From positions 69,362,354 through 69,426,353 of the forward strand of contig OY979717.1 of the NCBI GenBank assembly GCA_963855995.1: 64,000 bases of DNA. The letters run 5' to 3'. Source of the stretch: Muricea muricata. Lineage: Eukaryota; Cnidaria; Anthozoa; Malacalcyonacea; Plexauridae. Below the pieces are notes generated by a model. It made no database searches and was not told where the DNA came from. It saw only the letters and a list, made by a program, of their open reading frames with translations. A program made the position numbers and the translations under genes. Below are positions 1,913 to 34,000 of this stretch, in pieces; the stretch's first letter is position 1, and the number at the start of each line of letters is the position of its first letter.

Positions 1913-2100
1913 AATGGTAATTTTGTTATTTTAACCTTTAAAGTATAAGTCGCAAGAGCTGTAATTATTATTGCTTCAGAGAGGAAAATTGAAAGTATTT
2001 GGAATGCTTAAAGCTTGATGTACGGGTAACGGCTGTTCGAATGATTGGAAATAGTAAGCATACCGCAGGTGGTCTTAATCTGTTTATATAATCTCATAAT

Positions 2101-7800: not shown

Positions 7801-9255
7801 AAACATATATATAAAAACTGAAGTTTTATATATTCCCATTCGGCATTACCAAGTTTAGTAATTTGGGCATATTTACAGAGAAAAGAGTATTGAATGTACC
7901 CAGTTCTTAGTGCGAGAAGCTCTATCCTCGAGCTTCTTTTGTAAAGCAGGACCAACACCACGGCAAAAATCATCAACTTTACTTTTTGTAATCGCGAATT
8001 CCTTCTCACTTACGCACGGTCTCACTATAATTAAAAAAAAAAGAATATCAGCATATTCAGCTGGCTGGTGAAACTATGAGCCTGGCACAACCAAGCACAT
8101 TCTCACTAGTCTGCTCACCGCTCACTTAATTTGCTTTGAGAATAACTTTAAACTTTTTACTTTGCCAAAATATAGCAAGAAAAAAACAAAGTAAAGGAGA
8201 GTACAAAAAATATTTGTTAAAAACGGTTAGATGGCCAGAAAACTGGCCAAAATGGACCCGCTGTAGATCCAGTCTAAAATTTCCAGCCATAGGGATCTCG
8301 CTAAGAAGGAGTTTTGTTTTCCGTTTGAAAAATTTACCGATCTAACCATTCTGGCAGTGCAAATGAAAAGTGCCGTTAGTCCTACCAATCAAATTGTCAA
8401 GCTCCCAGCCGTCATCTTGGTACTTCAGGTCCAGTCAGAAAGGTAGACAGGAAAGGAGGTGGGGGAGAATAGTAGAATAAGTTATTAAAAGCAGGCTAAA
8501 GTCATTGCTAATGTTGAATTCTGTCATAAAAATATTTTTGTTCATTATGAATATAATGCATCTTGTGATAATTTTCATAAGTGTTAAAATGTACAAGTTG
8601 AACACAGCTCTTGCAATTTAAATAACAAGCAGCCTCGACTAAAGAAAATGTGTTGAAAGTGATATCTCCTCAAAACAAGCACATCCCAAGCATAAATGCT
8701 GGTAAACGTGATGATGTGGTCAGATAGCCTGTGGCAAAATTGTACCTAGCTTGAAAGTTTTGTCTTTCCATCTTCTAGTGTTGTATCATATCAGGCAATC
8801 TGGGAAAATTTGTTGTGCAAAAAAGGGAAGAATCTGGCATTCTAAGTGAGTTTTTGCCTTTCCCCTGTGGGCGCCCATGTAAACAACCTCCCTTAAGGTG
8901 AGCTGGTTTGTAATAATATACTAGGAATAATTGGTATATGCCCAGCCTACAGAGTTTGTTATAATTATAATGGTCTGCATGCAAGCCAGAGCATATCCTT
9001 TTGAATATTGCAGAAGTACATATCCTGGCACATTACATGACAAATTACAAAGAGCATCAAGGCTAAATTAATCACAGTAATATCAACTGGCTTTTCTACT
9101 AAGTACATTCAAGAAGCAAAATATCTAATAATGTACTAACCTGACTCAAGATATTTTTGACATGTTTGTCTAAGTTGTGGGAGAGGCAAACTTGGCAATG
9201 TTTCTTCATATCTCAGAGTCTTCCCAATTATACCATGTATAATTTTGGATGACAT
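4826..9255 (-). CDS. CROT: Carnitine acyltransferase, CROT-like, N-terminal part (four exons)
   Basis: Enzymes of this family move medium or long acyl groups between CoA and carnitine; CROT does so in peroxisomes. Exons on the minus strand are 9255-9141, 8024-7900, 6976-6795 and 4950-4826, each with GT and AG borders and matching phases (1, 0, 2, then open in phase 1). The joined protein starts MSSKIIHG and shows family hallmarks in order: LPSLPLPQL near the N-terminus, GVGPALQKKLEDRA, KNWLEKWWEEVAYL, NVSGP, EGSQVNRAA, and PLSMSQYYNLLSWCRIP. NVSGP and the WP..EG.Q segment resemble CROT more than CrAT or CPT. About 181 residues are covered against roughly 610 in the family, so the catalytic His region is missing. 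No upstream stop fixes the start codon. It is either continued far left across the satellite array or truncated. Confidence 0.86.
5161..5277. mobile_element. Short element with 21-bp perfect terminal inverted repeats around a tRNA-like SINE piece
   Basis: 5161-5181 and 5257-5277 are exact reverse complements (21 bp, beginning gattcatattaatctg). Between them lies a tRNA-like part with a B-box 'gagttcgaatcccgc' and the words aacccgaagatg and ctctgcagtgtcaga. These also occur, in diverged form, in the minus-strand SINE copy at 50288-50402. The element sits in the last recognised intron-flanking region of the CROT-like gene, between that gene's exon at 4950 and the one at 6795. Confidence 0.8.
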
Positions 9256-10781
9256 GTTCAATCCAAACAAGTGAGTACTAAGATGCACTGAACTTATAGC
9301 ACACCAAAGGTTTACTTGTCTATAAATACAAAAATTCCATTATTTAGAGGACCGAGTGCTGCAGCAAATCCCTCCAAAACTGGGCAACAATTCATTTAAT
9401 ATCCTGCAATCCTGACATCACAGCATTTTTACTTGTTTACATTGTTACATGGAACAGACTTGATTTGAACCCAAATAGTTTTATAGATCTCTACCCCATC
9501 TCCACCACCCATTTTGATTCAATGTTGAAGTTAGAGTCATGCACAGACATTCTTTTAAATCTCATCTATGAAAGTAGGTGGGGGAGGGGAAGGGATTGCA
9601 GTACCTGCCTCATTGCTTTAAAAGATATCCACTGTCAAAAGATACTAGGTTACACTCCAGAGTTGGATAAGGTTGGGAAAGAGGTTGTCCTGGCGTTCCA
9701 GAAGGGTTTTCACTTAAAATTAGGTGCAATGAAGAGAGAACAGATTAAGACAAATCTGACACAAAACGAGGAAATTGAGTGTGTTATATACCGGTAATTT
9801 AGCGTGCGATAATTCTCAGGATGACACAATCTGATCTAAATTCTCTGATCCAAGTTAGGATAATGGTTTTGTATCTTCATATTTGATAAAAATAGACCAC
9901 AGAATTGAAATGTTTAAACATTTAGAGGAAGAGTAATGGCATTTCAGTATTTAGTTTTTCTAATACATTTCACTGCAGTGATCGACAAATGTTTTACTGC
10001 AGCCTCAAATTGCAGTCAATTAATGTATAGGTGACACAAAATTATTGTCCAAATGTCCAAATGACACAAAATCATTGCATAGTGCCGATTTCAATTCTGA
10101 GTTCTGTTATTGGCAAAGATGCGTAGATAGTAAATGAAAAACTGATGTCATGGGCATTTGGAACGCCTTTTGCAGCAAAAAAATATGACACCAATTTGCC
10201 ATGACTAGATTACTTTCTTATATCTAGGCAAGTTAAAAACATCCTGTCTTAACCCAGCCAGGACCATATGAACACAGTAGCGTCAAGCCAGCCCGACAAT
10301 TTGGTCATGCTATGCAAATTCAAATAATTATCATGATTCATTTCCAAAGAAATTTGTTCCTTATACGGTCAAAAACACAGAAAAATTTGCATTTGCATGA
10401 CCAAATGTCGGGCTGGCTTCGCTAGACGCTACGCCTGCCCTGACCTGCCTTTAGGCTTTTGGCAGTAGCCCATTGCCCTATGATCCCTGTTTTTTATCTC
10501 AAATTTAATGTGAAAGTAATTACTTACCAAGTCAACATTAGTCAAAACACATTTTTGCTCATAATATATATTCGATTAAAATCTCGCAAGAATCGTGTAT
10601 GGTACGATCTACGCTGACAATCCCAAATCAGTGGTGGTGATTGAGCAATGCTGCAGGAAAATGTGGAATTGTGGTATTACATGAAGTATTTCCATAGAAG
10701 AAGAAACAGACAGAAGAACGTGCTTCAATGTTCAGTGAAAAACCATCAGTTTGAAGTTCATTGAAAAGAATATCTCCACAA
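9256..10781. promoter_or_regulatory. Divergent spacer between CROT-like and EXOSC4 starts
   Basis: The two start codons (9255 minus, 10782 plus) face away from each other across 1.5 kb, so both promoters should lie here. I see no clear TATA box or other core element. A 156-bp inverted-repeat element occupies 10277-10432. The open frame at 9465-9797 has no recognisable motif. Confidence 0.45.
10277..10432. mobile_element. Palindromic MITE-like element
   Basis: The left end gtagcgtcaagccagcccga pairs with the right end, which reads tcgggctggctt then gacgctac. The right arm has six extra bases (cgctag-type) inside the arm. The arms continue inward through 'ttggtcatgc..gcaaatt', giving about 45 bp per arm. 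No coding capacity. Confidence 0.82.
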
Positions 10782-11871
10782 ATGGCAGGTCTTGAAATTC
10801 TCTCTCCTGAAGGATTCCGCTTGGATGGACGGCGCCCAGGTGAACTGCGCCGTTTAGTTTGTCGTATGGGTGTGTTTAGTCAAGCTGATGGATCGGCCTA
10901 TATTCAAATGGGTAACACCAAAGCATTAGCGGCTGTGTATGGCCCGCATGAAGTGTCAAACAAGACAAAAGTTCGCCATGATCAAGCATTAATAAACTGT
11001 GAGTTTAGCATGGCCACATTTAGTACTACAGAAAGAAAAACAAGAGCTAAAGGGGACAGAAAGTCTATTGAAATGTCTATGGCAATCAGACGTACATTTG
11101 AATCATGTATCCTCACCTCACTATATCCACGATCGCAAATTGATATTTTTGTACAGGTATGCAAATAAAAACTATAGATGTATTGTGTGTAAATATCCCC
11201 CTTTTTGTGGAAATTTTGTGAGGTTTTTGAGGGGTGTGTGCACTACTTCCATGACCCACAATGTATCAGCAAAATAACAATGGATACACCGGAAGTAGGA
11301 AGACACAATGACCCATTTGGCATGTGGGTACTTGCTGATACAAACGTATCAGTTGTATTCCATTTAGATGATACATTCAAATTTAAATTCAATTTTACTT
11401 TGATTAAATTTTGTTTTTGAAACTATGGACTCAGTATTGCCTCAGTACCACATGTAACCACTTCTGGTAGTGGTATACCAACATTACCATATATATCTAT
11501 TTTTCTTGCAGATACTACAAGCAGATGGAGGTAATTACAGTGCATGTATAAATGCTGCCACTTTAGCACTACTTGATGCTGGCATTCCTATGAAAGATTA
11601 TGTATGTTCATGTTCTGTAAGCTTCATTGATGATTCAGCACTCTTGGATATAAACTACTTAGAGGAATCTTCAAGTGCACCGCAACTGACACTTGCAATT
11701 TTACCAAAGTCTGAAAAAATTGTTCTTTTTAGGCTTGATTCCAAATTACATGCAGATAACTTAGAAAAAGTCCTTAATCTTGCTAAACAAGGCTGCAAAG
11801 ATGTGTATACTTTGTTACGAGAACATGTTCATGATTATGCAAAACTTTCATTGGCATCTATGTGCAGTTAA
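10782..11871 (+). CDS. EXOSC4: Exosome complex component RRP41 (EXOSC4), complete, two exons
   Basis: RRP41 is one of the six RNase PH-like subunits forming the ring of the RNA exosome, which trims and degrades RNA 3' to 5' in nucleus and cytoplasm. In animals the ring subunit is structural. Exon 1 is 10782-11156 (125 codons, donor gtatgc) and exon 2 is 11512-11871 (119 codons and TAA, acceptor ttcttgcag), phase 0. The 244-residue protein matches the human length (245). It starts MAGLEILSPEGFRLDGRRPG and contains GSAYIQMGNTKALAAVYGPHE, the RNase PH core with GDRKS, PRSQIDIFVQ, then LQADGG and NAATLALLDAGIPMKDYV. The ATG at 10782 is chosen because it aligns with the family start; the upstream in-frame codons lack an ATG. 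A possible poly(A) signal is aataaa at 12012-12017. Confidence 0.97.
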
Positions 11872-13057
11872 TACACTTATAGCAAAAATATTCTACACTG
11901 TAAATGTACTGACAAATTAAAGGTCATAGCTCAAAATGTGTGTTAATTCTCTTATTCTTTGAGTGTTGCTGATCAGCAACTGTGATAGAACAGTAGTGAT
12001 TCTTGACCTGTAATAAATTCTGTCATTTTTTAGTGAATTAAAAAGATGTAAAATTTAGTGGGGTTATGTTTGCATCTACATAGGAAAGATTTTAATTGGC
12101 TTGTTGTAATATCATTTGATCAGTCAGCAATGAGAGTGCTTTGTTCCTGAAAAGTCTTTGTACAAGAAGGTGCTAAATGCACCAATGACCTTTAAAGTAC
12201 TTTAAGAACATAGAATATAGTTTCTCATTGACAACAAGCTTGGCAGCTGTTGTGCGCAGTATCACTTATACTGTTGTGAATGTATTGTTTTGATGATATT
12301 AGAGCGACAATTCACGTGTTCACAAGATGGTAGGATGATGGATAGGGGGGGGGGGGGTAAGTTGTATACACAATAGGTTGATACAGACAACAGGCCAAGC
12401 CAGCCAAAACGAACACAAATTGTTGGGAATTATAGAAGTTTAAGCGGAATAGAGCTTCCCTGCGCAAGAGCAGATCAGGTTTGTGCTCAGATATCAGAAG
12501 GCTTTTGTCAGTCATCAATTCACAAGTATCTGAGCAGGGGGGGATAATTTTGAATTCATCAAAGTTAATAGGAACTAATAAAATTTTTTCTATACCTTGC
12601 TACTAACATTGGTAACATTATTTAGAGGTTTAATTGCATTGAAATAATAGATAACTATCATTTCTATGGTTAATTTCTATAGTGACTCGCCTTGACATGA
12701 TCCGTTGATCCGCGGAGCCTTTAGCCGCGCAGTCAACCGTATCTTGTTCGTATCATATTCGTAACGTGCCGTGAGAAAAACGTTTGCGTGCTCCATCGCC
12801 TGACATCGTTTTGCCTGGCCTGGAAGACAATCAATATGGCGGAATAAATTTTGTGAAAATATATTGAACCTTATTTATTCGAAACTGTTCACTTGACGGA
12901 AAGCAACTTTGATCCGCACTTTAGTTGACAGAATAGTTGCAATATAATGTCATCGACGAAAACTATGGACAATTTATCCATAAAAACAACCTATTAATTC
13001 GCTGTTTCATTTGGCACTGTGTATTCAATTGCATCCGATGTTTTTTCAAAGGCGGAC
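11872..13057. promoter_or_regulatory. Spacer between EXOSC4 and the ankyrin gene, likely promoter of the latter
   Basis: The first part is the EXOSC4 3' flank. A poly-G run lies at 12346-12357. From about 12690 the sequence becomes locally richer in CpG (ccgcggagcctttagccgcgc). An AATATGGCGG word resembling a YY1 site sits at 12833-12842, about 215 bp before the proposed ankyrin start. No gene is seen. Confidence 0.45.
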
Positions 13058-16000
13058 ATGGTAATACATCAGTTATCAGATGAGGTAAGACGATATTGTC
13101 AGCATTAAAATTAGATAAAAATTTTATTATTCTCAATTGTGTTGTCCGTAGAGACATTAGATCGCCGCAAAGTACTACTGGGTGTTTACAAACCACTTGT
13201 GAGCATGAAATTTATCGATTTCCGACCAATCAAATATCAATAGGATATTTATTAATGTTACATTAATTATTTCTTGTTCAAATAAGTATATTACTGTACA
13301 AAAATATTTTTAATACTTCCTACCACCTATATTTTAGAAGATTTAAACACGTATTAATTATACTCCATAAATAATTTTGTTAAAGATACATACAATCTAT
13401 TTTCTTTCCATGAGCATTGTTTTTACTTTATGATAACTGGGCACGGAAGAGCGTTTGGAAGCCGTTTATATTATGGAACTTAAGATGATTTTTCCACATA
13501 GTGTTGATAAAACTCAAGCAGATCAAATTTGTTTTAGTACTTGCTAAGAATCTGTCTTGAGTGTTTGACTTTCAATTGACATTGTGGCACTTCTGTATAG
13601 TAGTCTAACAGGAAAGGTTGGAAATTGTGAGCCCGGATTTACATAATTTAAAAGTACAAAGATATAATATAAAAATTATGCTGTATAATATGTACAAACT
13701 AGTCTGGCATTGTAGTGCAATATACTTTGGACAATATTCTGTGGATAGTTTGGATGATAGTACTTAGGATAATTCATGTTCACTCAGTGATAGTTGCAAA
13801 CCAAGTAAATTCTGTTGGAACAAATACTCCAAATTTGACTTTTGTTTCCCATTCATCACACATGTCTCTTGGAAGTAGCTGCATGATTTGTCTATTATAA
13901 TTATGTAGCTATGTAAACTTGTTGCCATTATATGCAGAATAACAAAAAAACAATGATTTTTATAATGACTGCATTTGCTGTTTAACAAAGGCAAATTTAA
14001 TTTATAACATAATACAATAACAGTATTAACATTTTTTTTATTAATAAGTAAAATCAAATCAAAATATCAATGTTCTTTATGCCTTGTCACTCTCAGACTC
14101 TTAATAAGAGCAAATCAGAACAAAATATCTGTCTAAAATCTAAAAAGCAGCTTCTGACTTTTCTCCCCCTTGACAGGGGTAAGGGGGAAGCCATTCCACC
14201 CCTCTTTCCCCTAGTTCTTGTGACCTGTCTAGGGCCTCCAGCGGGAATCAAACCTAAACAGGTACTGTACATATTTGTGATGCCAATGTTTTGACCAGTA
14301 AGCTACAGACTAGGTAGTTGTCAGCTATAGACACTCACACTCTTTCAAAAGTGTCAACAATTCTACTTTGATTTTTAGTACTGTTACAACCTTGTCCCCA
14401 GGGTCATCTTTGTGGGTGCAATGAGGAAATAGATGACCCTGGTAAAGGCTGTAAAAATCTCCAAGATTCGTGGAGATTTTCGAGCATGCGCAGTCATTGA
14501 ATAATGTGGCGCTGACTCAAGTTACCACTGGTACAGAGCATTGGCGTGCACATTTTCACAATATATACAGAAATTTACGAATATTTAAAGTTTAAGTCTC
14601 AGTTTTAACTACTCCCTTTATATTTGCTGCATATGATAAACTAAATATCCAAAATGTATATATAGTACCTACATAGAGTACAGTAAGATCCATTCGATCT
14701 GCACGCATGTTATTCTTACGCTACATTCGACCATCTAGTTTTTGTAATTTGTTGGACTAAATTGCGTCCTTCGTGTGATACTCAACATTAAAACAACTCA
14801 AACCAACCACAAGTTGTATATAAAAACCTGACCTAATAAATGTGCAGAAAACAGGAAGTAATATTATGCTGTCATTTCGTTAAACCAATCACATTTATTG
14901 TCACAAACCGTGTCTGGTCGAATGTGTTAACCAATGAACAAGGAGATTTTACAGCCTTTACCTGGGTCATCTATTTCCTCGCCGCGCCCACAAAGATGAC
15001 CCTGGGAACGAGGTGGGCTAGCATTCCAAAGGTCGTAGGTTCGAATCCCACCGTGGCCAGGCATATTTTTCAAGCTTGCCCGGTGTGGATATACACTCAG
15101 AGTAACAACACTTACATCATATTAACCTGAGTACATAACATCATTATATAGAAAAAAGATCATACTATTAGAATACATTGATATCGAAGGAACTAGACTC
15201 AGTTCTGAAATATCATATACTCGAACCGACTTGACCGCGTAGCTCAGTTGGTAGAGCGTTGGGCTAGCATTCCAAAGGTCGTAGGTTCGAATCCCACCGT
15301 GGCCAGGCATATTTTTCGAGGTTGATACTGTTATTGTCATTTGCCAAGATATGCCAGACACATATTATAGTTTAATAGTTAGTGAATTTGCAAGCACAGA
15401 ATTTCAACACACATCTAAGCAAACTCATGAACAGACTAGTGAGAATGTGCTTGGCTCAACCAGGCTATGGCTCAGGGCTGATGGCTCAGGGTTGATGGCT
15501 CAGGGTTGGTTTACTATTGTCCAAATAAATACTCTATTAAGTTCTATTTCAGGAGTACTTTCACTTGAGTGTATTTTTTCAGCACTTTTCTGTTACTTAA
15601 GTAAAAAGTTCAAGCAAGACTTCCATGTTTACTAAAGTAAAATTTTCAAGCATTACTTTCACGTGATAGTTAGCAGTTATAGATACTGTAAATATTACAT
15701 ATGTCATCAGTATCATGTAAACCTAAAAATATTGCTTGATTGCCAAGCACGTTAGAAAGATTCATAGTTCCACTAAACAAGGGGTACTGATTATTGGTTG
15801 AATCTGCCCCCTTCCTTTTTTATCATTCTGATGTTCCTGGACCTTAGTTGATGATGAAGTTTTCTCAACTGTTCCTGGCTTGAAACTCAACATACAACAT
15901 GTGTATTCCAGTTGAGAGTGGCCATATTCCAACTCACAACTTAAAATGGTCATTGCAAAAGATAGATTACAACTACAATTAGTTGCATTTACAGCAGTTG

Positions 16001-19000
16001 CATTCTTCCTGTAAAAGATTGATAATAATTGTATGTTTATTTGCTAGCTGTTACAGCCTTTTTGAACTTTGCTGGATGGCTTGGACCAGTACTTTAATTC
16101 AACTGACATATTTGTAATTAGAATTACAAACTCTGAGAGAAAATTCTTAAATTATGTATAGAAAATTTGGGAACTACATGATTATCTACTTTAAAGTTTT
16201 TCCAACTTATATATTTTCAGTCAAAGTGCTCAGTATAAGAACATTGTATACTCTAAAAATAATCTTTTCTGCAATGTTTTAAAGGGCTCATGGAATGCGT
16301 GGGTCTTAGGGTCATTTATTTTCTGACGATTTTGAAAAATGAACATTACTTCATTTCTCAAACAAATCATCTTACATTTTTTAAAAAAATGAAAAATGAA
16401 AGTTAAAAAGTCATTTTTCATTTTTTTGAAAATGAAAAATAAAAATTTATGTTTTATTTTTCATTTTTCGCCTGTACGAAAAATGAAGACAAGTCTTTAC
16501 ATTTTTTCTGCGTTTTGAAAAATAAAAATGACATTTTTCACTTTTGCATTTCAATTTTTATTTGTCAGAAAAAAGCAAGAATTGAATTTTTACTCTCATA
16601 TTAATCCGTTGTATTGTTCATTTTCCGAACCATATTATAGCTGCGTGTGTTGTCTTATACTCGTTCAAAATGGCGGCATTAGCTGATATTTTAAGTGTTG
16701 AAGCTGTCCGTGAACTAGTGCAAAACCACACGCTAAAAGAAGTTTCAAATATTCTTCAGACAGAATTTCCGAACCAGAGAGGCTAAAGTGTGAAAAGCAT
16801 AAAGCGTTTTTGCCAAGCACACGGAATAGCGAAAAGAAATATTGTTACTGACGATGAACTAGACCAGATTGTCGAGTCGTCTGTGCGACAGGTAAATCTC
16901 ATTATATTGTGGCCTTCAGTTGTGTTTTAATATTTTGCTTTACCAGCAAGCTCACTATACTTCACTGGATTTAATGGATAACCGGATAAGTACATAACAG
17001 TTTATTAATTTATTTTTGAGTAGATTTTCTTCGTTATCTCGGTTAAATACCTTGCATAAATAATTAGATCAAACTTATGAAAAATCTGAAACTTATGGAA
17101 AAAGTCGAAAGATTCCGCTAGAAACCCCCCTCAACGTCCTAATGTTATTAGATCACATAAATCTCTGCTTCGAGGTATTTATCTCTTACACACATGTTAA
17201 ATATGTGGCTGCCAGTAAAGGTCAAAAATAGTATTGACATTAGGCATATGTTGCGTATATATTTACATTTCCCTGGGAAAGTTGTTACATTGCCCGTCCC
17301 TACTCAAACTGCCTCGACTGTCATTGAACTACCCTAGTTGTTATTGGATTAATCATAGCCAGTCCAGAAGAACCAGTTTCGTTGAGGGGGGTTTCTAGCA
17401 GAATCTTTCGACTTCAAACAATTTAAGTTGAGATTCTTCGAGATTTTTCCACAAGTTTGATCTAATTATTTATGCAAGGTATTTATCCGAGATAACGAGG
17501 AAAATCGACTCAAAAATAAACTAATTAATTGTTATGTACTTATCCATTAAATCCAGTGAAGTATAGTGAGCTTGCTGGCACAGCAAAATATTAAAACACA
17601 AATGGAGGCCACAATATAATGAGATTTACGTGTCGCACAGAAGACTTGACAATCTGGTCTAGTTCATCGTCAGTAACAATATTTCTTTTCGCTAATCCTT
17701 GTGCTTGGCAAAAACGCTTTATGCTTTTCACACTTTAGCCTCTCTGGTTTGGAAATTCTGTCTGAAGAATATTTGAAACTTCTTTTAGCGTGTGGTTTTG
17801 CACTAGTTCACGGACAGCTTCAACACTTAAAATATCAGCTAATACCGCCATTTTGAACGAGTATAAGACAACACACGCAGCTATAATATGGTTCGGAAAT
17901 TGAGCAATACAACGGATTAATATGAGAGTAAAAATTCAACTCTTGCTTTTTTCTGACAAATAAAAATTGAAATGCAAAAGTGAAAAATGTCATTTTTATT
18001 TTTCAAAACGCAGAAAAAATGTAAAGACTTGTCTTCATTTTTCGTACAGGCGAAAAATGAAAAATAAAACATAAATTTTTATTTTTCTTTTTTAAAAAAA
18101 TGAAAAATGACTTTTTAACTTTCATTTTTCATTTTTTTAAAAAATGTAAAATGATTTGTTTGAGAAATGAAGTAATTTCATTTTTCAAAATCGTCAAAAA
18201 ATAAATGACCCTAAGACCCACGCATTCTCATGCTTTCACTTTCTGAAATTTTGACAACATTCAAATTTCACATGCAGGCTACTTTTTATCTGCTGCACCC
18301 ACCCCCCCCCCCAAAAAAAAAATATGGAATTTTATGATTATCACAATTTAAATTGTTTCTATTGAGAGCAATTTCTACTATATTTATTAGTGCTATTGTG
18401 TTTGAATTAATTTTAATTACAACATTTTCAATAAGATTTAATACTAGAACTTAAAAATCCTAGTATTATATACTATTGCAAATTTTGTAATTTGATTGGT
18501 AATCTCGTTTCAATCCAGTTGCTATGTATTTCTTGTCTTGAAATGTCAAAACATGCAATCATTTACCTGGCACTTTTTTGTGATGAATCTCTGTTTATAC
18601 TCACTCTCAAATTAGAACTGTGTCGTCGCACTGGTACATTAGTTGTTCAATAAAGTAAAGCATTTGATAAAGTATACCACGTGAAGCTGTTAGATCGTCT
18701 CCGTGAATTCGGATTTGGAGGAAGCATCAAATGGTTTGGCTCATGTATTTGACCAATCGGTATCAACAAACTACTGTTCTTGGAGCAACGTTAAGGCCGC
18801 TTCCAGTAACATCAGGAGTGCCACAGGCGTCAATCCTCGGTCCTTTATTATTTCTTCTGTATGAGAATCATCTCTCCTACGCTGTGACTAATTCAAGGAT
18901 TGCTATACATTTCCGGACGATGCCAAAATCTTCAAGACCATCAATTCAATCTCTGATGCATCTGCTCTACAAAATGATCTGTCAAACTTCTAAGATAAAT

Positions 19001-22000
19001 CAAGCCGTATCAACCTCGAAGTGAATAACACCAAATGCAAAGTATTAAGAGTCACTAGAAAGCACAATAAGATCACTTATCCATACAAGCTCAACGAAGC
19101 CATCATAGAAAGCACGGATTGTGAGCGAGATCTTGGAGTTTTAACATCTATTCTGACCTGGTCTAAACAAGTTGACCACCTGTGCAACAAAGCCACCAAA
19201 ATGCGAGGATATGTCCGAAGATCAACCTTAAACATCAAAGATACTACAGTTCGTCGCAGACTATATTTATGTCTTGTTCGCTCAAAGTTCTGCTATGGGC
19301 TCAAATCTGGGCACCGCAATCGGTGACCTCAATCAAACGCGTAGAAAGACTTCAAAGACGAGCAACAACGTACGCTCTAAATCTACCCTTCCGCTGTGGA
19401 AATGTAAGACGACATCTCTCAACCGAACAAAAAGAATTTGGAACATTTTACCTAATTGACAAGCAATAACACTAGTTTAGGACAATTCAAAAACAGACTT
19501 TTCAAATATTATAAATTAGCGGTGGAAGACGTTTTTGACGTTGAAGATCCAAGAACATGGAAATCTATATGTTTGTCTCTGTCCAGTCAAATATCGTGTT
19601 GTTGTTAGATTTGTGTTCTTTGTATAGTATTAGTATAGTCCTTGGGGCCCCATTGGTGAAAACTGTAGTGTGCACTGTGAGATATATTGTATATTGTCGT
19701 AAATTTACTGTAAAATGTTGCATGTTAGTTGGAAAGTTAAAAAAAATAAATAAATAAATTGTAATAAACGTAGTTTGATTTAAAATAAAACATGATTTAT
19801 ACAGTTAAAACTTAATTTACTATCATGTCTGTTTCTTTTGCAGCCTGCTATAGTTCAAGCATGTTTTCAAGGTGATGCTGTAGAACTTCGTTCTCTCATA
19901 ACTAGGAAAGAAGATGTTAATTCATTGGTAAATGCAACAAATTTTTACTCTAATTGATTTATACATTAAAAAATATTATCTATATTTTGTTTCAAAAAAG
20001 GAGTAGCAATGTTACACAGTTACTTAAGGCTCACTTGCACCTATTTTTACCATGTATTTTAAGCAACACATATTATTTACAATTTACTTAAGATAGTGTG
20101 TTTTTCAAAAGTGCAATTTTTAAAACCACATACCACATGTTACACAATCATGCACAGGTACTTAAAGGTGACTAAATCCATAGAGCATATGCATTTTAAA
20201 GACTTTTGAAACTCGCTACTGCTAGTTTTTATTACTTATTAATTTTGTGAACAAATTATACAGGTCAGGAGGCAGAAGATAGAAAGAATTACTTATAATT
20301 GCACTTGCAGATCAATAAAGCAGCTTCTGTACAGCCTGAACCTGAAGTCCTCCTGCAAATTTCAGTTCCTGTCCTTGTATTTGAATACTATTGTACTGTA
20401 TTTCACTGTACCATTTTTTATTAGACTGTTCATAGTAGATATATAGTGTTAGGTGAACCAGCTCTGTTTCATTGCAGGATCAAGAGAGACGAACTCCATT
20501 GCATGCTGCGGCATATGTCGGAGATATTGAAGTTCTTAATACTTTGATTGTCAATGGTATGTACTGACTCTTTAATCTAAAAATGTCAGTGGTAATTGTT
20601 GACCAAAAGGTATAGATGAATAATAGAAGTAATAGGAAAGAAACCAGATAGGTGAAATATAGTAGGTAGATGATAGCATAATATTTAGAGTGAATAGAAT
20701 ATGATACTGGGGTCGGTTGTGTGAACGCTGGATAGTGCTATACACCGGATAATGAATTTTTTCAACTGCCGCAAAAGGACATAAAAACAGTGACACTAAG
20801 AATATTGACCTCGCATAAGATACAAAGTGACTTTAACTTGAACGTGATGAACTTTAATATAACTTTTACAAGTTACTGAAAATGTTTAGAGAGTTGCAAA
20901 AAATCACTATCCAGTGGATAACGCTATTCACCTTTAGTGCAACCAACCCCTGTATTTGAGTGAGCTATCGTAGCTTGGTCATCCAGAATTGGCTCGTAAC
21001 AGGAATACATTAACAACAGCCTTAGAGCCAATCAATTGTTAAAATTAATTAAAAAGAAAAACAAGTCACAGCTTACTGTAACTACATGTAAGACACTTCT
21101 TCTTTCCTACATTTTAACTTATTTTCAACAAATTTCACCCCCTGTCCTTATTTTAGTCACAGTTTGCGAAGTTAAGGTACGACATATTTTCTTGATAGAA
21201 TAATTTGCATGTGTATTAGAGAAAGCTGTAGTGCGAAACCTTGCGCAAATGATTTTTTTATGTAACTGGGGTCGGTGGTTCGAAACGTAGATAGCTTATC
21301 CACTGCTGGTCCCAGATGTGAAGCTCAACAAACTATAATTTCATTCTAGGATCACGGGTGAATACAAAGGATACTAAATGGTTAACTCCACTACACAGGG
21401 CATGCGCTTCTGGAAACACCGTATGTTTTATTAAATTCAGCTGCTGTAATTTCATATTCAATAATATTAAACCATGTTGGTTGTAGTTCTAAAATAAAAT
21501 TTGGTCTATTTTTCTGTCAAGGAATGTGTTAAGTCGTTAATGAAACACAATGCAGATGTTAATGCGAGAGACAAGAATTGGCAAACACCTTTGCATTTGG
21601 CTGCTGCCAATAATCACATGAAATGTGCTGGTAAGTTGGTATTTGCGCGTGAAAAGGGCTGATAAAAATAAAATAGATTTCATATGTAGACATTACTCAT
21701 AATGGTGACCATCGCGGAAAAGAACTAGGACGAGAACATCAACGCAAAGGTACATGTAGTCAAGTATATAGCCCCCTAAGGGGGGACGAACAGAGAATCG
21801 TATCGCACGCTCTAAAAGTCCTTCCTAATAGTCTCCACTAACCTCTTGTCCAAGTGCTATGACGTAATATACATGACACATAAAACGCACAATTTGTAAA
21901 GAAACTGCAAACAAGTTGTAGGAAGTCAGTTATAACAAGTTGTGAACAAGGTTGTCCTAGTTTTTTTCGCCCTTTTCCCTGTTTGTCTCAAGTCGCAACA

Positions 22001-25000
22001 GCAATCGTGCAACAAGAAACAGCTTGTTATATCAGACTTGTTACATGGTCGTTCTGACCAGTTTGATACAGTCGGTTCTAATATTATCGAACCTTTGGAT
22101 GGTTGAACGGTACGTGATATATATTTCTACTGTTACAGTAGTTCCTAATGATTTTTACGTATCTTCAGCCGTGTGTCTCCGGAGTACATAACAGATACAT
22201 AAGAATCATGTTGGAACAACGTTACAACAAATCTCATAATATCAACAAGGTTTTGCAACTTATTTGTCCCCAACTTGTTGACAACTACTATAGTAACAAG
22301 CCATGAAAGAATCTGTTGACAGTTTGCTACATCTGTATACAAGGCGTATGATTTACCTGTGTATGTCAGAATTCTGCTGTTTTCTTAAATTATTAGTTTG
22401 AAGTACAGTAAGTTCTTGGAATTTTTAGAGCTACTAATTCCTCATCTTCAAAACGTGAACATAACTGATCGTGCTGGTCGGACCAGTTTACAGCATGCAG
22501 TTTATAATGGACATGTTCAGGTATGGCAGTGGCCGATTCATTTGCTTTGAAGCACAATATGAAATACTCCTCTCACCCATTAATTAAAGAAGAAATTACC
22601 GCATGGTCGTTGTAAGGTGTAAGTGCTAAGTGGGACGGTCTAGGTAACTACTGGGGAAATGCCATTTGAGTTTATCGCGTAAGTGGGCGAATTTCGCAGC
22701 AAAACGATGAACGCTTAATAATGAACTTAAAAGCAAATATTGCTACTTTCTAGTATGAAAATACCTTTAAACTTGTAGCTCGCTTAATGGACCATTCCCC
22801 AATTAGACAAACTTTCAATTTCGAAAACAATTTTAGCTCAACTGGAAAGAGCTTCCTAAATTTAGTGAAATTGTGAAGTTTGGTTGTAAAATATTGTAAA
22901 ATGTGGAAAATATGGTAATGTAAAGTTTGCGAATTTCGTATACTTTTGTATTACGCGGGAAAAAGCGTTACCACATTTCCACGTGGTGGTAACGCTTTTC
23001 CGTTCGTAATACAAAAGTATACAAAATTCACAAACTTTACAGGACTATATTTTCGACAATATTTTGCAACCAAACTTGACAATTGTATGAAATTTAGTAT
23101 GCTTTTTCCAGCTGAACTGATTGATTTTCTGAATTCAAAGGTTTGTCTAATAGGGGAATCCATTGTGCACACAAATGCTGTTTACCTCTCTGGCATCTCC
23201 AGTATAGCGACTGTTCAGTTAAAGTTTCTCGTAGTTTCGCTCGCGTGAAATGAGTTAGTCGATGTCCCCTAAAGTCGTGGATTTTTCCATCGGTTTCGGT
23301 TTGCTTGTACAAGTTATGTGCTAGTGTGGGATAGTGGTAGTACAAATCTGGTCTTGTCTTATGTATATCAGGATTAGGACGGTAGAGTTTGTTACTAAGC
23401 ATCGGAAACTGTTGGAAAATGCTTCGAGAGACAGTTATAGTATATGTTACTGTATTTTTTCAAGATGGTAAATTTGTTATTGTGTCATGGTGCTAACGTG
23501 GACAGTGCAGATAAGAGAGAAAAACGAGCGATACATTGGGCAGCGTATCATGGTAAGAATAAACGAATGTGAAGAAATGTACACGCGGATTAGTATTATT
23601 TTGGCAACATCCAATTACAGTACTCAAACGCTTCCACTACAATTTGTGCGAATACTTGTCGTCTTGATACTTTTGAGAGGTCAGATTTGACATATTACAT
23701 TCTCGTTAAACAAATTGCCGCATCCTCTCCTACCCCACCCTCCAATGTCCAATCAATCTTTCAATCAACTTTATTTAACGAAGGTGAACACTGAACTAAT
23801 AAGTGGCTCTCTTGCACTGTAACTATAATACATATCGAACAGACATTGCATTCACATATATATCGAAATGGTTTTGAGGCAAGAGTGAACACTGTAGAAT
23901 GAACATGGTATTAGTACAGGTGAAGGGAAAAGGGAGGGAGAGGATAGAATTTATTGCATGTAAGAGCAATGAAGGATCATGACCTTTACTGTAATTTGTA
24001 TTTGCAATCCCGTGCTGCCAGGATTGTCTTCATCAATTATTGCATGATTGTAGCTATCATGAACCGATCCCTGCACTTTAAAAACACTGCAGTATTACTG
24101 GATTTCTCAAACAGGGTGAAGCACCATGATTATAAGAATGCAGCCTGCATTGTATACAGCACTGTCCCGTTTTACGAGCGGTTATGAAAATATGCTTACT
24201 GAATTCTCTTGTTGTTCGTATCATTTTAGTGATATTCTATCTCAGTACAGTACTGTATTCGGAGGATTGGGTTTAAAAGAGAAATGTTTGTTCTTGATAG
24301 GTCATATCACATGTCTTGAAATGTTGATTGAAAGTAGAGCTGAAGTTGACTGTCGAGACAAAAAGGTGAGTGGCGGGTACTGTACAGTTGGGGCGTGTAC
24401 TTAGTGTAAGAAATAGCGTGTAGTTTGTGTCAGTGCAAGTGAAATGAACAAATTTCGTTTTTAGGCTAGTACTGGCTAGTACGTATTATTGTCAGTTGTC
24501 AAGCGTAAATGCCAACAACTGGGACGCGTACTGTTAGAATACAGTCATTGAATGCTGAATTGTTAAAGCTGACTCGAACACCTTTCTTTTCTACCTAACT
24601 CGTCTGTTCCAAATCGTATACATGCATTGCGATAATATTATGATTAAATGTTGTATTTTTTTATGTTTTTAGTTGTACACTCCACTTCATGCTGCAGCTG
24701 CTGGCGGTCAGTTGAATGCTATAAAAACATTAATCAATGCAGGAGCAATGGTAAATATCTTGTGTATTTATTAGTGCGAAACACAGAAAGCTCTTGGAAA
24801 TATTACCCGTTTTCGTATCCTTTGGCCTCACTGTACTGTGAGCAATTATATTTTATATAATAACTAGAGTTCATTCCAGTTTTTCATTGGGTCGAGGGCC
24901 GTGATTTATCAGAGGACAGACACATTAGTGACACCATCTCAGCGAGAAGCCAGTCACATCCATTTCAGAATTATTTGTCCTGTATGGATCATGATCACGT

Positions 25001-28000: not shown

Positions 28001-31000
28001 AAAAACGTCCATGTTAATTACTGTTATGCGGACCGATATTCACCATTTTAAGGACATATTCAACCAACAGAGACTGTTTATACAATCTCTCAGCAATGTG
28101 AAACATACATGCAGTATGTTTAAGTTAGGATTAAGGAACTATTTTTAGTTTTTCAGAGCTTCGATTAGCCTTGGGATTAGGATTAGAACTTTGTTAAAGG
28201 TTTGGATTACAATGAAAATAAGGGACAGAGATAGGTTTAGCCCAGGTTTAGCCTTAGGATTGGATTAAAGGTTGGGATTTTGACTGGGATTATATTGACA
28301 CAAAAAGTCAAAAAATAGAAAAAAAAAACCCCAATAAAATGTAAAGGTTAAAATGTGGAAAAGACGTTAAACGTTACCAGAAACAGTTGCATAAAGGCAA
28401 CACCATATTGTTCTCTAGCAGCAAACTATAGCGCCCTTGTGTGCTTTATTCCCTGTTTAATGCTATAGTCTTTCTAGCATTATCTCGCATCATGTTCCAT
28501 AATCAGAATAATGTTGCTAGGAATCTAGAGACTCTCTAACAAGCTTTCGATTCATTTAAATTTCGCCGTTTAACACCTTATGATAATTCACACTCTTAGC
28601 CTAACTTTATACACTGCCTTCACAGTACTTCGTCTAGCACTTTAGATCTGGCGGTGATTATTTATTGCGCTAGGGCTACGATAATCATTTAAAAACACAT
28701 TTATCACTGCCCTAATGTGTGGCCTTGATAATCTTCATTTAGAATGGGTTTTGATGGAATGAGTCCATTGCATATGGCTAGCCTGGCTGGTCATGCTGAG
28801 TGCTGTCGGAAACTGTTGCAATATGGTAAATGCAATGTGATACTTACACTACACCAGTCTATTGTTCGTCCTATAGAGAAAGGTTTAGATTTGACTTCCT
28901 CCACCGCTACTCTTAATCAATCTTGTGTGCTGTACCTACCCGATTAACCAATCCGGTTCTTTAAAAATCGCAGTAGTGGAACTCAGATCTGAACCTCGAT
29001 CGCCTCAAGAAAACAGACATAAACCACTCGTTTGCTTCCATGGCTCAAGAAGTCTCGAAGGAAACGACCGTCACCAAGTCAGGGTGATATAGAGCAACTG
29101 TATAGTTTGAATAATATTGATAGCAATTATTTTCCGTCTAAGCTTTCAGAGATGAGGTGGTAGATGCCGTAGCACGACCTCATTTAAATATCTCTACTCC
29201 GTGTTTACTAGCTATATGCTTCTGAAGGAAAACTTCATTCGTCTAGTCGTTATAATTTCTGGCATTAAAAAGATAACAAACATAACTCAAATAATGTTTT
29301 AGCCTTGACATGTCGGTTTACCTCGATCCTTTGCGAAGAGCTAGCGAGAATAAAGTACTATCTACCAAAGCTTATGTTGACAAGTCACACTCCTTATATG
29401 GAGATAGTAGTAAAACTAATTTAGGTTTGGCAAAGGATTACGACAAAATCGACATGTAGCCAGTTTTTTTTTGTTATGATCTCAGTCAATCGCAGGTTGT
29501 AGAGCTATATTTTTTTAAGGAGCATCGATTAATGTAAAGGACAGCTACAACAGAACATGCCTCCATGCTGCGGCATGCAGTGGGTGAGTACACTGGTTTA
29601 CACGTCTGGGTCAGGATTAAAACAACCATCACTACTACATTACTGTATTTCAATTCACGACATACATCCCCTGATATCCACAACCTTTACTTCACTTTAC
29701 AACATACATCACCAGATATCCATTCACTATCTTTATTTCACTTTCACAACATACATCACCATATCTCCACTATTTTTACTTATCGGTCACAACAAACATC
29801 ACTAGATTTATACTATCTTTACTTTACTTCACAACAAATATCACCAGATATCTACTACTGTTCTTTAATTCACTTCACAACAAATATCACCAGATATCGA
29901 CTACTGTATCTTTAATTCACTCCCGTAAGATGCACGACCAGATATCGACTATCTTTGCCATGCCTTACGATATACATCCCCAGATATACCTGTGCTGTCT
30001 TTACTGTACTTCACAATATACAATTTCTACTTGAGCATGAAATGTTATGTTTTTAGGAATGTCGGTTGTCTTGAGCTCCTCATGAGCAACGGAGCTGATC
30101 ACCACGTTGCGGATAAGTTTGGAAGGTATGTTGTGTGTTAGCGTGTTTTGTTTACAAATATCAGTTACTGAACATGTTAAGAAAATTTGAGAAAATCGTG
30201 GATAGCGTTATTCATCTTTCCTACAACTGAATCAAGATTTATAAAATTATTGTAGTTTAAAGATCTAGACAACTGGCCCTAGAAGAATTATTCAACATTC
30301 TTCAACGTATTTACATGGCAGACAAGTCTATCATGCAATGTAAAATTTTCGACCTTGTAGGACGCCACTTCATTACGCTGCTGGTCATGTTCACTACGAG
30401 AGTGTCGTATTATTGGTTGGATCTGGTTGCAATGTCAACAAATCTGATACAAAATCCTGTACAGCATTACACTATGCTGCAGCTCATGATGAAGATGCTA
30501 AGTATGACATAATAATGGTATACATCATAACTGACATATGATCTGTGTTCACTGTACAAAATCCACCCACGCGATTGGTCAAAAACAATCACGTGTGTTT
30601 TTGTTACTTGGTAACAACGAGTCTTTTGGGGGCAGTATTGACAATAACACACGGAAAACGTGCATTATTCATTTAAAAAGGCTATAAATTTTGTAAAAAT
30701 CAATGAAATGAAAAGATATTTAACCAGACTGGACACAAAGCAGTTCCTAAAAGTACGAAAAGAGAAACAAAGTAAAGCATTGAAATTTTTCGAGGTAAAT
30801 AAACTAAGCAAAGATGTAGGCGTCCGGTATTTCAATTAGTACAGGCAGTGAACCCAGATCATATATTAAATGGGTTAGAGACGTTTAGTTCGTGTTTTGT
30901 TTACAAATAACGCGCTTGCTGAATGTACAATGAACTCAAAATTTTCTTTATACTGCACTTGACCCCGGCTGCCTCGTGCAGTATAAATAATTTTTCGTTC

Positions 31001-34000
31001 ATTGTACATTCAGCTTGTGCGTTATTTGTGAACAAAACACCAGAACAGTCTCTCAATATTAAATATCATAGTATACTACTGCTACTATTATACCAGAGGG
31101 CTGGTTGTTCAAAGCTGGGACCAACTTTTGCGGTTTCTGTATTTCTACACCTCCGTTTCTTTCAAAACATTAAAGACCAAATTAAATTACTAGAACTGAT
31201 TTAGACAAGGTCTCTGAAGAAATATTTTCAAACTTTTAAGCAAGCTGCTGGGAATTTTTTTATCTTATTTTAACCCTCGGATGAGCTGATCTGCTTCTGG
31301 ACAAATTACACCTGGTGTAGACGACCCGTATAAATTAGCATTGCATTGAACTATTGTCTTGGGATAGCCTAAACATTACTGACATGCAGTGAACTGTGAA
31401 TAAAAGTACAGTATTTATGCGGCAACCTTGGGATCCGTCACTTCAATAGACAAATTTGGTTAAAGTTTCTATGCATATATTCAGTTGGTAACTTTATGGA
31501 TAACTCACATACACCTGGCAAATCTTATTCTGATTGAGAGAAATTAGTCATAGCCGCAAGGACATGAAATAGAATTAACAAAGCTTAACGAGTCAGTATT
31601 ACAGACACGCCGTAATTTGTTGTTGTTCATACTACTGTACTTTTCTATGAAATTATTGATGTGATATTCTTACATTCTAGGATTGTTGAGCATCTCCTTA
31701 CGAATAACGCGAACGCCAGTAAGAGAGATAAAAAAGGTTTTACTGCCATTCATTATGCTTCTGTGAAGGGAAATAAACTCTCCATAGAAATGGTTAGTCC
31801 TTTACTGTGTACATTGTATTTTGTAAATACGTTTACACCTTCAATTTTGGTGCAATTTTTAGTGTATGATTTCTCACCTGAACATTTCCGACTGAATCAC
31901 TTGTTCACATCATGCAACAAAAGTAGAAATTAGGGTAAACAAGCCAAATGAGATGTCCAATGAAGTACCTCGCGAAATATCTGCACATTGTGCAACAATG
32001 TCTTTATCTTTCTCAAAATGAACTGCATCCAGCCGTAATTTTTTTACTAATAATGTTTAATGTTTCTAGTAATATATACGTTAAAATGTTTTTTCTCTGT
32101 TCTAGTTGTTAGATCATTGCTCTGCAGATATTTTTAACATTAGTTCTGGGTCTCCTTCAATAACACCTTGTCATTTAGCGGTAAGCATTTACTTCACTGC
32201 CACCGCATGTATACAGCAGAACATGATCCTTTTTCGTATCTACTGTAAATGTGTTTTTTTTCTCAATATTAATTAGCACTGTTTGTTCGTTAAATCTGGT
32301 AGATAAAAATTTTAATCAAGACATGATCGTGTGTTAATTTTAGGCATTTAACGGCCACTTCACAGCCCTAGATGCTTTGCTACAGTCCGCAATTAGTCCT
32401 GATGTCAAAGATGACAATGGTATTTTTTTTTCACGATTTTCCTGTCATATATTCTTAATATTGACGCATTTTACAAAACTTAGTATAGGTAATAGTATGT
32501 TATGAGAGTCACCCAATATTTTAATAAAGTATGCAAAAGAATAGTATCTAAAACAATCAAAATGATCATTTTAAAACAATCAAAGTGTTGTCCGGAGTAA
32601 CTATTCTTTTGTAATAGTATGACTTCGAGTGTAATTTAGAAACAGCATGCACGAGTATGTCGGACTCGTGTAATTTTGGCGTCATTCAAAAATCTACAAG
32701 GAGTGCAAGTTATTTCCAAATTGCACAAGAAACAACACTATTACATTTTAATAATATAAAAGGAAATGTTCGAGTGCGAGAAATGTTCTGTACTTACATC
32801 GCGATCGCTCCTCTTCACTTTTTCCTTTAAAAAACCTTAAATTTACACCCATAACCTCTTTATAAATATATGTAAAGTAGGCAAAACTTCCCAATCTTTA
32901 GATATTTATTTCAATTTTTCTATTTCGTTAAAAAACCAGCCAAATTGATCACAATTGTTCTCAAATTTCACCCGCCAAATTTGATCACAATTGTTCTCAA
33001 ATTGTTTTGTTAAGAAAATTTGCATTCCAGAAAATTAGCATTCATTGCAAGATTTTTGCAATGTTGCTACAGATTTTTCCACTCCTGTTTTAGATTAACT
33101 TCACTGAAATTGACCAATCACAGTCGAAAAACATTTCTTTGTTTATTATTATTAGTGAAAAAAATTAGTGCAATATATAGTGAAGATGTACATGAATTTC
33201 TGACGCTTCACCCGGTTGTATGCAGTATAAATATCGTCTGATAGAGTGTTTTAACCTGTACTAAACGCAGGTGAGGAGATCGGAGGTTTGGCCTTAGAAT
33301 GACAGCTAAATAACTTATACATGTAAGACAAAGATGTCCGAATAGAATTTTTCAAATTTTGTTTGGAAATAATGTGAAGTTTGACATTTTTGAATAATAA
33401 AGTAAAAACTGCGTCGATGTTATTACCATCCTTGTACCACTTTCTTACAACTTTCTTTAAACTGTGATAACAACAGCGGTCTCTGAGGTCTCAAGTTTTG
33501 TTCCCTCACCCAAAACTAGTTTTTAACTATGCTGTTATAATTCTGTGTATCTGACATTAATATGTCATTAGATGTCAAACAATATTTTTACCTATTCTCT
33601 TCTTAGGCCGTACTCCGTTAGATTTAGCTGCTTCCTATGGTCATTGGTAAGTGCTGCACCCTTATAGAGGTACTTTTAGTCACAAGCACTGTGATCTATT
33701 CAAAATTGTCCTTTGCAAGCCTTGAGGCCTAAACCTTAAACCTCGAAGCACGCAAAACGTAAAAGGAGCACAAGTTTCAGGCGTCGTAGTTGAATGTTAG
33801 AGAGGTTTAGCAAATACGACGCGACGTCGAAGAGGACGTGAAAATGACGTGACAGACAACAGTCATCTACTTCCGGTTTGATCTAGAACGGCAGATTTAT
33901 TTTTTTGCAAACATTTTTGTGGTTTTATCCCACCTGCTTATTTCGTTGGATATTTCAATCAGTTGTCAATAAATGGGCAAGGAAATGCTTTCTAAGGATG

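What the first reader, a model, noticed from the sequence alone, without database searches (positions are those of the whole stretch)
16293..18227. Foldback element built from two inverted copies of a transposon 5' end, each with promoter, start codon and first exon
Seen: arms of about 850 bp, 243-bp centre, 5-bp TCATG duplication, and in each arm a 74-codon exon starting in CAAAATGGCGGC and ending at a gtaaat donor, both pointing inward. Known: integrase-core (rve-like) transposon genes with similar N-terminal words exist in cnidarians and fish. Inferred: an inverted duplication of one end of an autonomous element produced a mobile palindrome that kept a complete 5' terminus on both sides. 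Transcripts from either arm would read into the other and fold into long double-stranded RNA, a natural trigger for small RNA silencing of the parent family.
Basis: partly seen in the sequence, partly recalled or inferred. Interest (0 to 1): 0.75.

Follow-up and report, generated by a model that had tools for sequence, protein, structure and literature searches.

The report
Mobile palindromes from transposon front ends
This is one copy of a jumping-DNA family that consists of the front end of a transposon copied twice in mirror image; at least three distantly related transposons in the same animal-like genome have given rise to similar mirror-image elements, so their folding and possible self-silencing can be tested.

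Summary
The foldback at 16293-18227 is real: arms of 844 and 848 bp (95.3% identical), a 243-bp centre, an inward-pointing 74-codon exon in each arm. Two corrections: here both exons carry an in-frame stop at codon 39, and the family's target duplication is 6 bp, not 5. The window's own genome (453 Mb) could be searched. Of 25 other loci, 23 hold palindromes with the same centre; 11 of 17 copies with both ends placed have exact 6-bp duplications, so the palindrome itself moved. A broken parent-type element (L067) has the same 5' end, exon and intron, then integrase-core-like exons and a 16-bp imperfect 3' repeat. The foldback is the parent's 5' end joined to its own inverted copy, with the junction in intron 1. 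The anatomy recurs: exon 1 gave 33 convergent neighbour pairs (21 of this family, 12 others), 1 divergent, 0 same-strand; a second family (L064, L068, L069) and single palindromes (L065, L070) were read. Mu killer and Galileo are precedents: a new variant of a known kind. Double-stranded RNA and silencing are plausible but untested, and no intact parent was seen.

The parts
   Evidence: family length of 6 bp from 11 of 17 copies
16293..16293 (.). extra base G between duplication and element in this copy
16294..17136 (+). left arm: terminus AATGCGTGGGTC, subterminal region, exon 1, part of intron 1
   Evidence: aligns to parent-type L067 268-971 at 84.6%
16335..16531 (.). subterminal repeats: 8 AAAAATGA/TCATTTTT octamers within 16293-16600
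   Evidence: shuffle mean 0.49, maximum 3 in 1000; at most 1 in each of 1229 other 308-bp stretches of the window
16670..16891 (+). exon 1 of the transposase gene, 74 codons, stop at codon 39 in this copy, donor GTAAAT follows
17137..17379 (+). centre; its right 110 bp (17270-17379) continue the parent's intron 1 (95.6% over 113 bp with L067 979-1087)
17380..18226 (-). right arm, inverted copy of the left
17630..17851 (-). exon 1, second inverted copy, same stop at codon 39
18227..18232 (.). right target-site duplication CTCATG

Best explanation
A non-autonomous foldback DNA transposon. The 3' part of an integrase-core-like transposon (L067 type: exon 1, intron, core exons, imperfect 16-bp terminal repeats) was replaced by an inverted copy of its own 5' end; the junction lies in intron 1, some 60-80 bp before the core exon. 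Shown: structure, colinearity with L067, spread of the whole palindrome with 6-bp target duplications, neutral decay of the exon, occasional copying of changes from one arm to the other. Inferred: the duplication arose by template switching in gap repair after excision or at a replication fork; the parent's transposase, acting on two like 5' termini with their AAAAATGA repeats, moved the palindrome in trans; a transcript that starts in one arm would read the other as antisense and fold into a long hairpin, a possible source of small RNAs against the parent. Similar conversions happened to other relatives in this genome: the window family, the L064 family and L070 show no DNA similarity to one another in the comparisons run; L065, with only short weak similarity to the window element, may be a fourth case.
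For: Own-genome search with the terminus: 40 scored long matches (86-100% identity) of 70 candidates, at 26 places including the window. I fetched the 25 others; 23 of 25 have arms, some partial, on both sides of the same 243-bp centre, 2 (L031, L033) are one-armed pieces. Exact 6-bp duplications in 11 of 17 copies with both ends placed. Side-specific differences are shared across copies (two bases at arm positions 686-687 present in 13 of 19 left and 0 of 20 right arms), so one palindrome was copied as a unit. Parent-type L067. Its exon 2 DNA has 7 matches, of which only itself and one other (88%) are close, against 23 or more palindromic loci. Exon changes look neutral: 33 of 160 synonymous, 25.3% expected, p 0.20. 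Private changes: 191 on one arm, 9 on both arms of a copy, in 8 of 17 copies. Fold of 16601-17911 as RNA: -874.4 kcal/mol. Recurrence; control with exon 4.
Against: L067 has no target duplication (CATCAG against TTCCTC) and its terminal repeats match at 13 of 16, so its ends are less sure. A 182-bp stretch of the foldback (element positions 796-977) is replaced by 7 bp in L067, so L067 is a relative, not the source. Of 70 terminus candidates only 40 were scored. Six of 17 copies, the window's among them, lack an exact flush 6-bp duplication (L023 has 5 of 6, L009 4 of 6). In the exon 4 control, 2 of 16 matches also sit in a convergent pair. No transcript or small RNA data exist here.
Confidence: 0.9

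Rival explanations
1. The family simply has long terminal inverted repeats from the start, as in foldback-type transposons, and the palindrome is an internal deletion of a long-repeat autonomous element.
For: Foldback-like Galileo copies reach repeats of 959 to over 4000 bp, one with transposase sequence inside (PMC4168063 passages).
Against: The 3.9 kb of L067 held have no self-inverted stretch of 60 bp or more and a 16-bp imperfect repeat just behind exon 4; the left arm and part of the centre are colinear with its 5' end and intron.
Confidence: 0.08
2. The palindromes are active silencing loci: hairpin RNA from the arms is cut into small RNAs that shut down the parent family, and the palindromes persist because of this. 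(This adds a function to the best explanation and does not exclude it.)
For: Anatomy like Mu killer (PMC3440606 passages); long hairpin; only 2 close copies of the parent's exon 2 were found, both broken elements; the anatomy recurs.
Against: No RNA data. The exon decays neutrally, though a silencing trigger needs no open frame. Loss of coding copies while non-autonomous copies multiply is ordinary for DNA transposons. The two arms of a copy differ by 3.6% on average over positions 1-770 and are not kept identical.
Confidence: 0.2
3. Assembly artefact: a hairpin read or chimeric join.
For: Inverted duplications are a known artefact of some library methods (general knowledge).
Against: Arms differ by 39 in 835 aligned bases with separate indels; 23 other loci have the same structure, 11 of 17 copies with exact 6-bp duplications of different sequence.
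Confidence: 0.01

Closest known systems
Mu killer of maize (PMC3440606, abstract and passages seen)
   Same: Both ends derive from the transposase-gene end of the parent, with partial copies of the transposase gene in inverted orientation.
   Different: Mu killer is described there as one locus, with read-through from a flanking gene proposed as its transcription, from a MuDR element; here a multi-copy, mobile family with its own target duplications, from an integrase-core-like element, with no RNA evidence.
Galileo of Drosophila (P superfamily; PMC4168063, passages seen)
   Same: Foldback-like copies with long inverted ends, one with transposase sequence in both repeats; insertions in one arm becoming part of both.
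   Different: There the final piece of the transposase ORF is in the repeats and the duplication is 7 bp; here the first exon, and 6 bp.
IS3EU/GingerRoot transposons (PMC10045372, first part and passages seen)
   Same: Integrase-like transposase; usual target duplication of 6 bp.
   Different: Termini are stated to be TA..TA (GingerRoot occasionally TG..CA); here AATGCG..CGCATT and, in the second family, AATCAG..CTGATT.
Muta1 of Aedes (PMC5225508, passages seen)
   Same: Terminal repeats with subterminal repeats, classed there as a type 2 foldback element.
   Different: Mutator-like transposase, 8-9 bp duplications, 145-bp terminal repeats.

Membership tests
Foldback DNA transposon | long inverted arms flanked by a target-site duplication | tested here: met
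   arms 844/848 bp; exact 6-bp duplication in 11 of 17 copies
Foldback DNA transposon | many dispersed copies of the same palindrome | tested here: met
   23 of 25 other loci
IS3EU/GingerRoot | 6-bp target duplication | tested here: met
   also L068 and L069 of the second family, not L064
IS3EU/GingerRoot | TA..TA termini | tested here: not met
   AATGCG..CGCATT, and the base before it varies
IS3EU/GingerRoot | integrase-core transposase of that clade | tested here: inconclusive
   PF24764 below its cut-off on L067 exons 2 and 4; no tree made
Ginger1/Ginger2 | TGTNR termini and 4-bp (TDD: 5-bp) duplications | tested here: not met
   definition from PMC2836005 passages
IS481EU | TG..CA termini, duplications of about 4, 15 or 25 bp | tested here: not met
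   definition from PMC10045372
Mu killer type silencing locus | both ends from the transposase-gene end, inverted partial gene | tested here: met
Mu killer type silencing locus | small RNAs and silencing of the parent | not testable with these tools
   no RNA data

The most novel reading that the evidence does not exclude
Integrase-core-like transposons of this genome are repeatedly turned into mobile palindromes of their own 5' ends, which then outlive and outnumber the coding parents: a recurrent, self-made and self-spreading hairpin trigger that limits each parent family, a mobile animal counterpart of Mu killer.
Probability: 0.2. Interest if true: 0.8.

Novelty: new variant of a known kind. 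Interest (0 to 1): 0.52.

Why it matters
Mu killer is the well-known case of a transposon wreck that silences its parent, but it is described as a single locus in maize. A genome in which several distinct transposon families have each produced palindromes with the transposase's first exon in both arms, at least two of them mobile, turns 'do such wrecks regularly end transposon invasions?' into a countable, testable question: small RNAs, ages of palindromes against ages of last coding copies, and junction positions can all be compared. It also bears on how foldback elements form, because parent-type element and palindrome can be aligned base by base.

Tried and rejected
Exon 1 against Pfam (E up to 10) and NCBIfam: no family; against PDB sequences: 2 chains at E 0.15 and 0.46, taken as chance. 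Exon 1 in viral contigs and genome contigs, and the terminus as an exact pattern in both: no relative, as expected of an animal element in those collections. Bacterial promoter and terminator scan: no more than chance, and not fit for this genome. Ginger1/2 and IS481EU: rejected on termini and duplications. First idea that the shared stop predates the inverted duplication: rejected, because 37 of 37 other arms have a sense codon there; it is a change private to this copy that is now on both arms. In one search my script entered 0 of 16 for exon 4 in the test; the same output showed one convergent pair (2 of 16; gap 3,987 bp), and repeats the test with 2 of 16. Six-frame Pfam scan of 9001-24000 (E up to 1) gave no transposase match there.

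Full report
Observation. The inverted repeat is there as described. Arms 16293-17136 and 17380-18227 align with 39 differences in 835 bases and three gaps; without the ragged inner 74 bases it is 24 in 761. The centre is 243 bp. Both arms hold the ATG and a GTAAAT donor 74 codons on.

The copy is one of a family. The window lies in an unnamed 453-Mb genome of 74 contigs. The first 408 bases of the element gave 40 scored long matches (86-100% identity) of 70 candidates, at 26 places including the window. I fetched the other 25. In 23 of 25 the arm occurs on both sides of the same centre (88.9-95.5% where the hit covers most of the centre); some are truncated or interrupted, and L016 holds two palindromes side by side. 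L031 has one arm and the start of the centre, L033 part of an arm. For 17 copies (window included; L016 taken as one) both ends could be placed. Taking the element as AATGCG..CGCATT and trying lengths of 3 to 9, 11 of 17 are flanked by exact 6-bp direct repeats; 3 bp fits once, in a copy that also fits 6, and no other length fits any. Of the other 6, L023 agrees at 5 of 6 and L009 at 4 of 6 bases.

History of the arms. I aligned 39 arms of at least 550 bp (19 left, 20 right); shorter arms and L016, L031 and L033 were left out. The exon is open in 23 of 39 and the donor GT is kept in 37 of 39. Changes from the majority are 122 non-synonymous, 33 synonymous and 5 nonsense, as expected without selection (p 0.20; 25 of 107 distinct events synonymous, p 0.74). 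Mean distance over arm positions 1-770 is 3.6% between the two arms of a copy (17 copies) and 4.1-4.3% between arms of different copies: this fits a burst from a palindrome whose arms were then nearly alike. Side-specific differences shared by many copies show that the palindrome was copied as a unit. Of 200 changes private to one of the 17 copies, 191 are on one arm and 9 on both, in 8 copies. Equal rates would give about 0.3 double hits by my hand estimate, so some copying between arms has probably occurred. The window's stop codon is one of its two such changes; the 37 other arms have a sense codon at that place. The outer 307 bp of the window's arms differ less (5) than the intron part (10 in 163; p 0.012).

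Parent. L067 (C1:72133500-72137400) carries, in order, the same terminus (AATGCGCGGGTCTTAG from 269), the arm (84.6% over 797 columns), 113 bp matching the right part of the foldback's centre (95.6%), and then open stretches at 1145-1648, 1839-2057 and 2554-2787. I read the words HVDQNEKL, QVRVDHGKEF and PVERFW in these as the three catalytic positions of an integrase core; that assignment is recalled, not tested. Pfam supports an integrase core weakly: PF24764 at E 2.4e-5 on the last stretch (24.6 bits, cut-off 26), E 0.05 on the first, nothing on the middle one. Five bases after the last stretch is CTAATACCCAGGCATT, matching L067's 5' terminus in 13 of 16 when inverted. L067 has no target duplication and has stops in exon 1. 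Its exon 2 DNA has 7 matches in the genome; only itself and one other, at 88%, are close, and that other one has stops too. So the left arm plus the right 110 bp of the centre is the parent's 5' end up to some 60-80 bp before the core exon, and the right arm is the same 5' end again, inverted. The foldback has 182 bp where L067 has 7, so L067 is a relative rather than the source.

Recurrence. Exon 1 as a protein gave 124 rows of 166 candidates (150 scored), 115 after merging pieces. Among neighbours closer than 4 kb, 33 pairs are convergent, 1 divergent, 0 on the same strand; 66 of 115 matches sit in a convergent pair. By place, 21 of the 33 are of the window family and 12 are not. The first part of the core (from L065) gave 108 rows, 106 merged: 35 convergent, 1 divergent, 0 same strand; 70 of 106 in a pair. 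As a control the last core exon of L067 gave 17 rows, 16 merged, with one convergent pair (2 of 16, gap 3,987 bp), one same-strand neighbour and none divergent; p 8.9e-4 against exon 1 and 6.2e-5 against exon 2. Copies of one family are not independent, so these p-values overstate; and exon 4 was sought with a query from one family, so its other families may be under-represented.

I fetched seven places besides L067. L064, L068 and L069 are palindromes with arms of about 1.0-1.1 kb (93.5-97.9% alike). Their arms contain the start of the core, and in L064 exon 1 too was read in both arms; exon 1 matches lie at both arms of L064 and at one arm of L069. They align with one another at 88-95% including centre sequence; the window element matches none of them and L064 does not match L067, so they form a second family. 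Termini are AATCAG..CTGATT; exact 6-bp duplications TTAAAC (L068) and GTTTTT (L069), none at L064. Its terminus has 147 candidates, of which the 40 scored give 9 convergent pairs, 0 divergent and 0 same-strand; the other scored ones had no scored partner within 4 kb. L065 is a third palindrome (88% over 470 bp, 89% over 166 bp) with exon 1 and core in both arms; its ends were not found, and short stretches of 57-86 bp match the window element at 73-77%. L070 is another (97.1% over 476 bp) with exon 1 in both arms (50% over 44 residues) and no core seen; it matches L066 and none of the window element, L064, L065 and L067. L066 itself is no palindrome: it has one copy of exon 1 in 6.1 kb, between 38-bp inverted repeats at 805-842 and 1357-1394. 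L071 is a worn palindrome related to the window family at 76-80%. At least three separate inverted duplications (window family, L064 family, L070) are the least I can count, with L065 a likely fourth; a tree was not made.

How it works. Shown: structure, movement as a unit, neutral exon, signs of arm-to-arm copying. Inferred: formation by template switching; movement in trans by the parent's transposase on two like termini, for which the eight AAAAATGA/TCATTTTT octamers are candidate binding sites; hairpin transcripts. RNA of 16601-17911 would fold end to end at -874.4 kcal/mol, as any such palindrome would.

Known cases. Mu killer has both ends from the transposase end and inverted partial genes (PMC3440606, abstract and passages). 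Galileo has transposase sequence in long repeats and insertions that became part of both repeats (PMC4168063, passages). IS3EU shares the 6-bp duplication but is stated to end in TA..TA (PMC10045372, first part and passages). My literature searches around foldback, inverted duplication, Mu killer and silencing (open-access library only, listings and beginnings of abstracts) listed no paper that I recognised as reporting several integrase-core families turned into 5'-end palindromes in one animal genome; that is no proof of absence.

Noticed in passing
G000 contig C1: The 17 matches to the last core exon of the parent are all on contig C1, which is 27% of the genome, while palindromes are on many contigs. 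It could be biology or a limit of the search; the control searches did not complete.
   Followed up: partly
C1:72133768-72140926: The parent-type element in L067 lies about 2 kb from a palindrome of the same family (L017).
   Followed up: no
C1:82386676-82393991: Two sets of core exons of a relative face each other within 8 kb, possibly two longer elements in convergent orientation.
   Followed up: no
G000:C2:69441571-69444691: A palindrome of the second family (L064) lies about 15 kb beyond the end of the window; one end has an extra tandem copy of its last 127 bp.
   Followed up: partly
L066 805-1394: A single exon 1 relative lies between 38-bp inverted repeats (84% complementary), perhaps a small non-autonomous element.
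   Followed up: no
window 22794-23159, 2457-2839, 30892-31040, 35833-35937: Other palindromic sequences of 105-383 bp (75-82% self-complementary), MITE-like.
   Followed up: partly
window 1-1913: Tandem array with a period of about 181/362 bp, about 5 to 8 copies.
   Followed up: no
window 15232-15306 and 15014-15078: tRNA-Ala (AGC) gene; its 3' part and flank (15260-15324) occur again 246 bp upstream at 97%.
   Followed up: no
window 10761-11871, about 21500-23570, 50740-51486, 61598-62578: RNase PH-type exosome subunit exons, ankyrin repeats, C2-domain protein, reverse transcriptase fragment: an animal-like genome; the taxon was not determined.
   Followed up: partly
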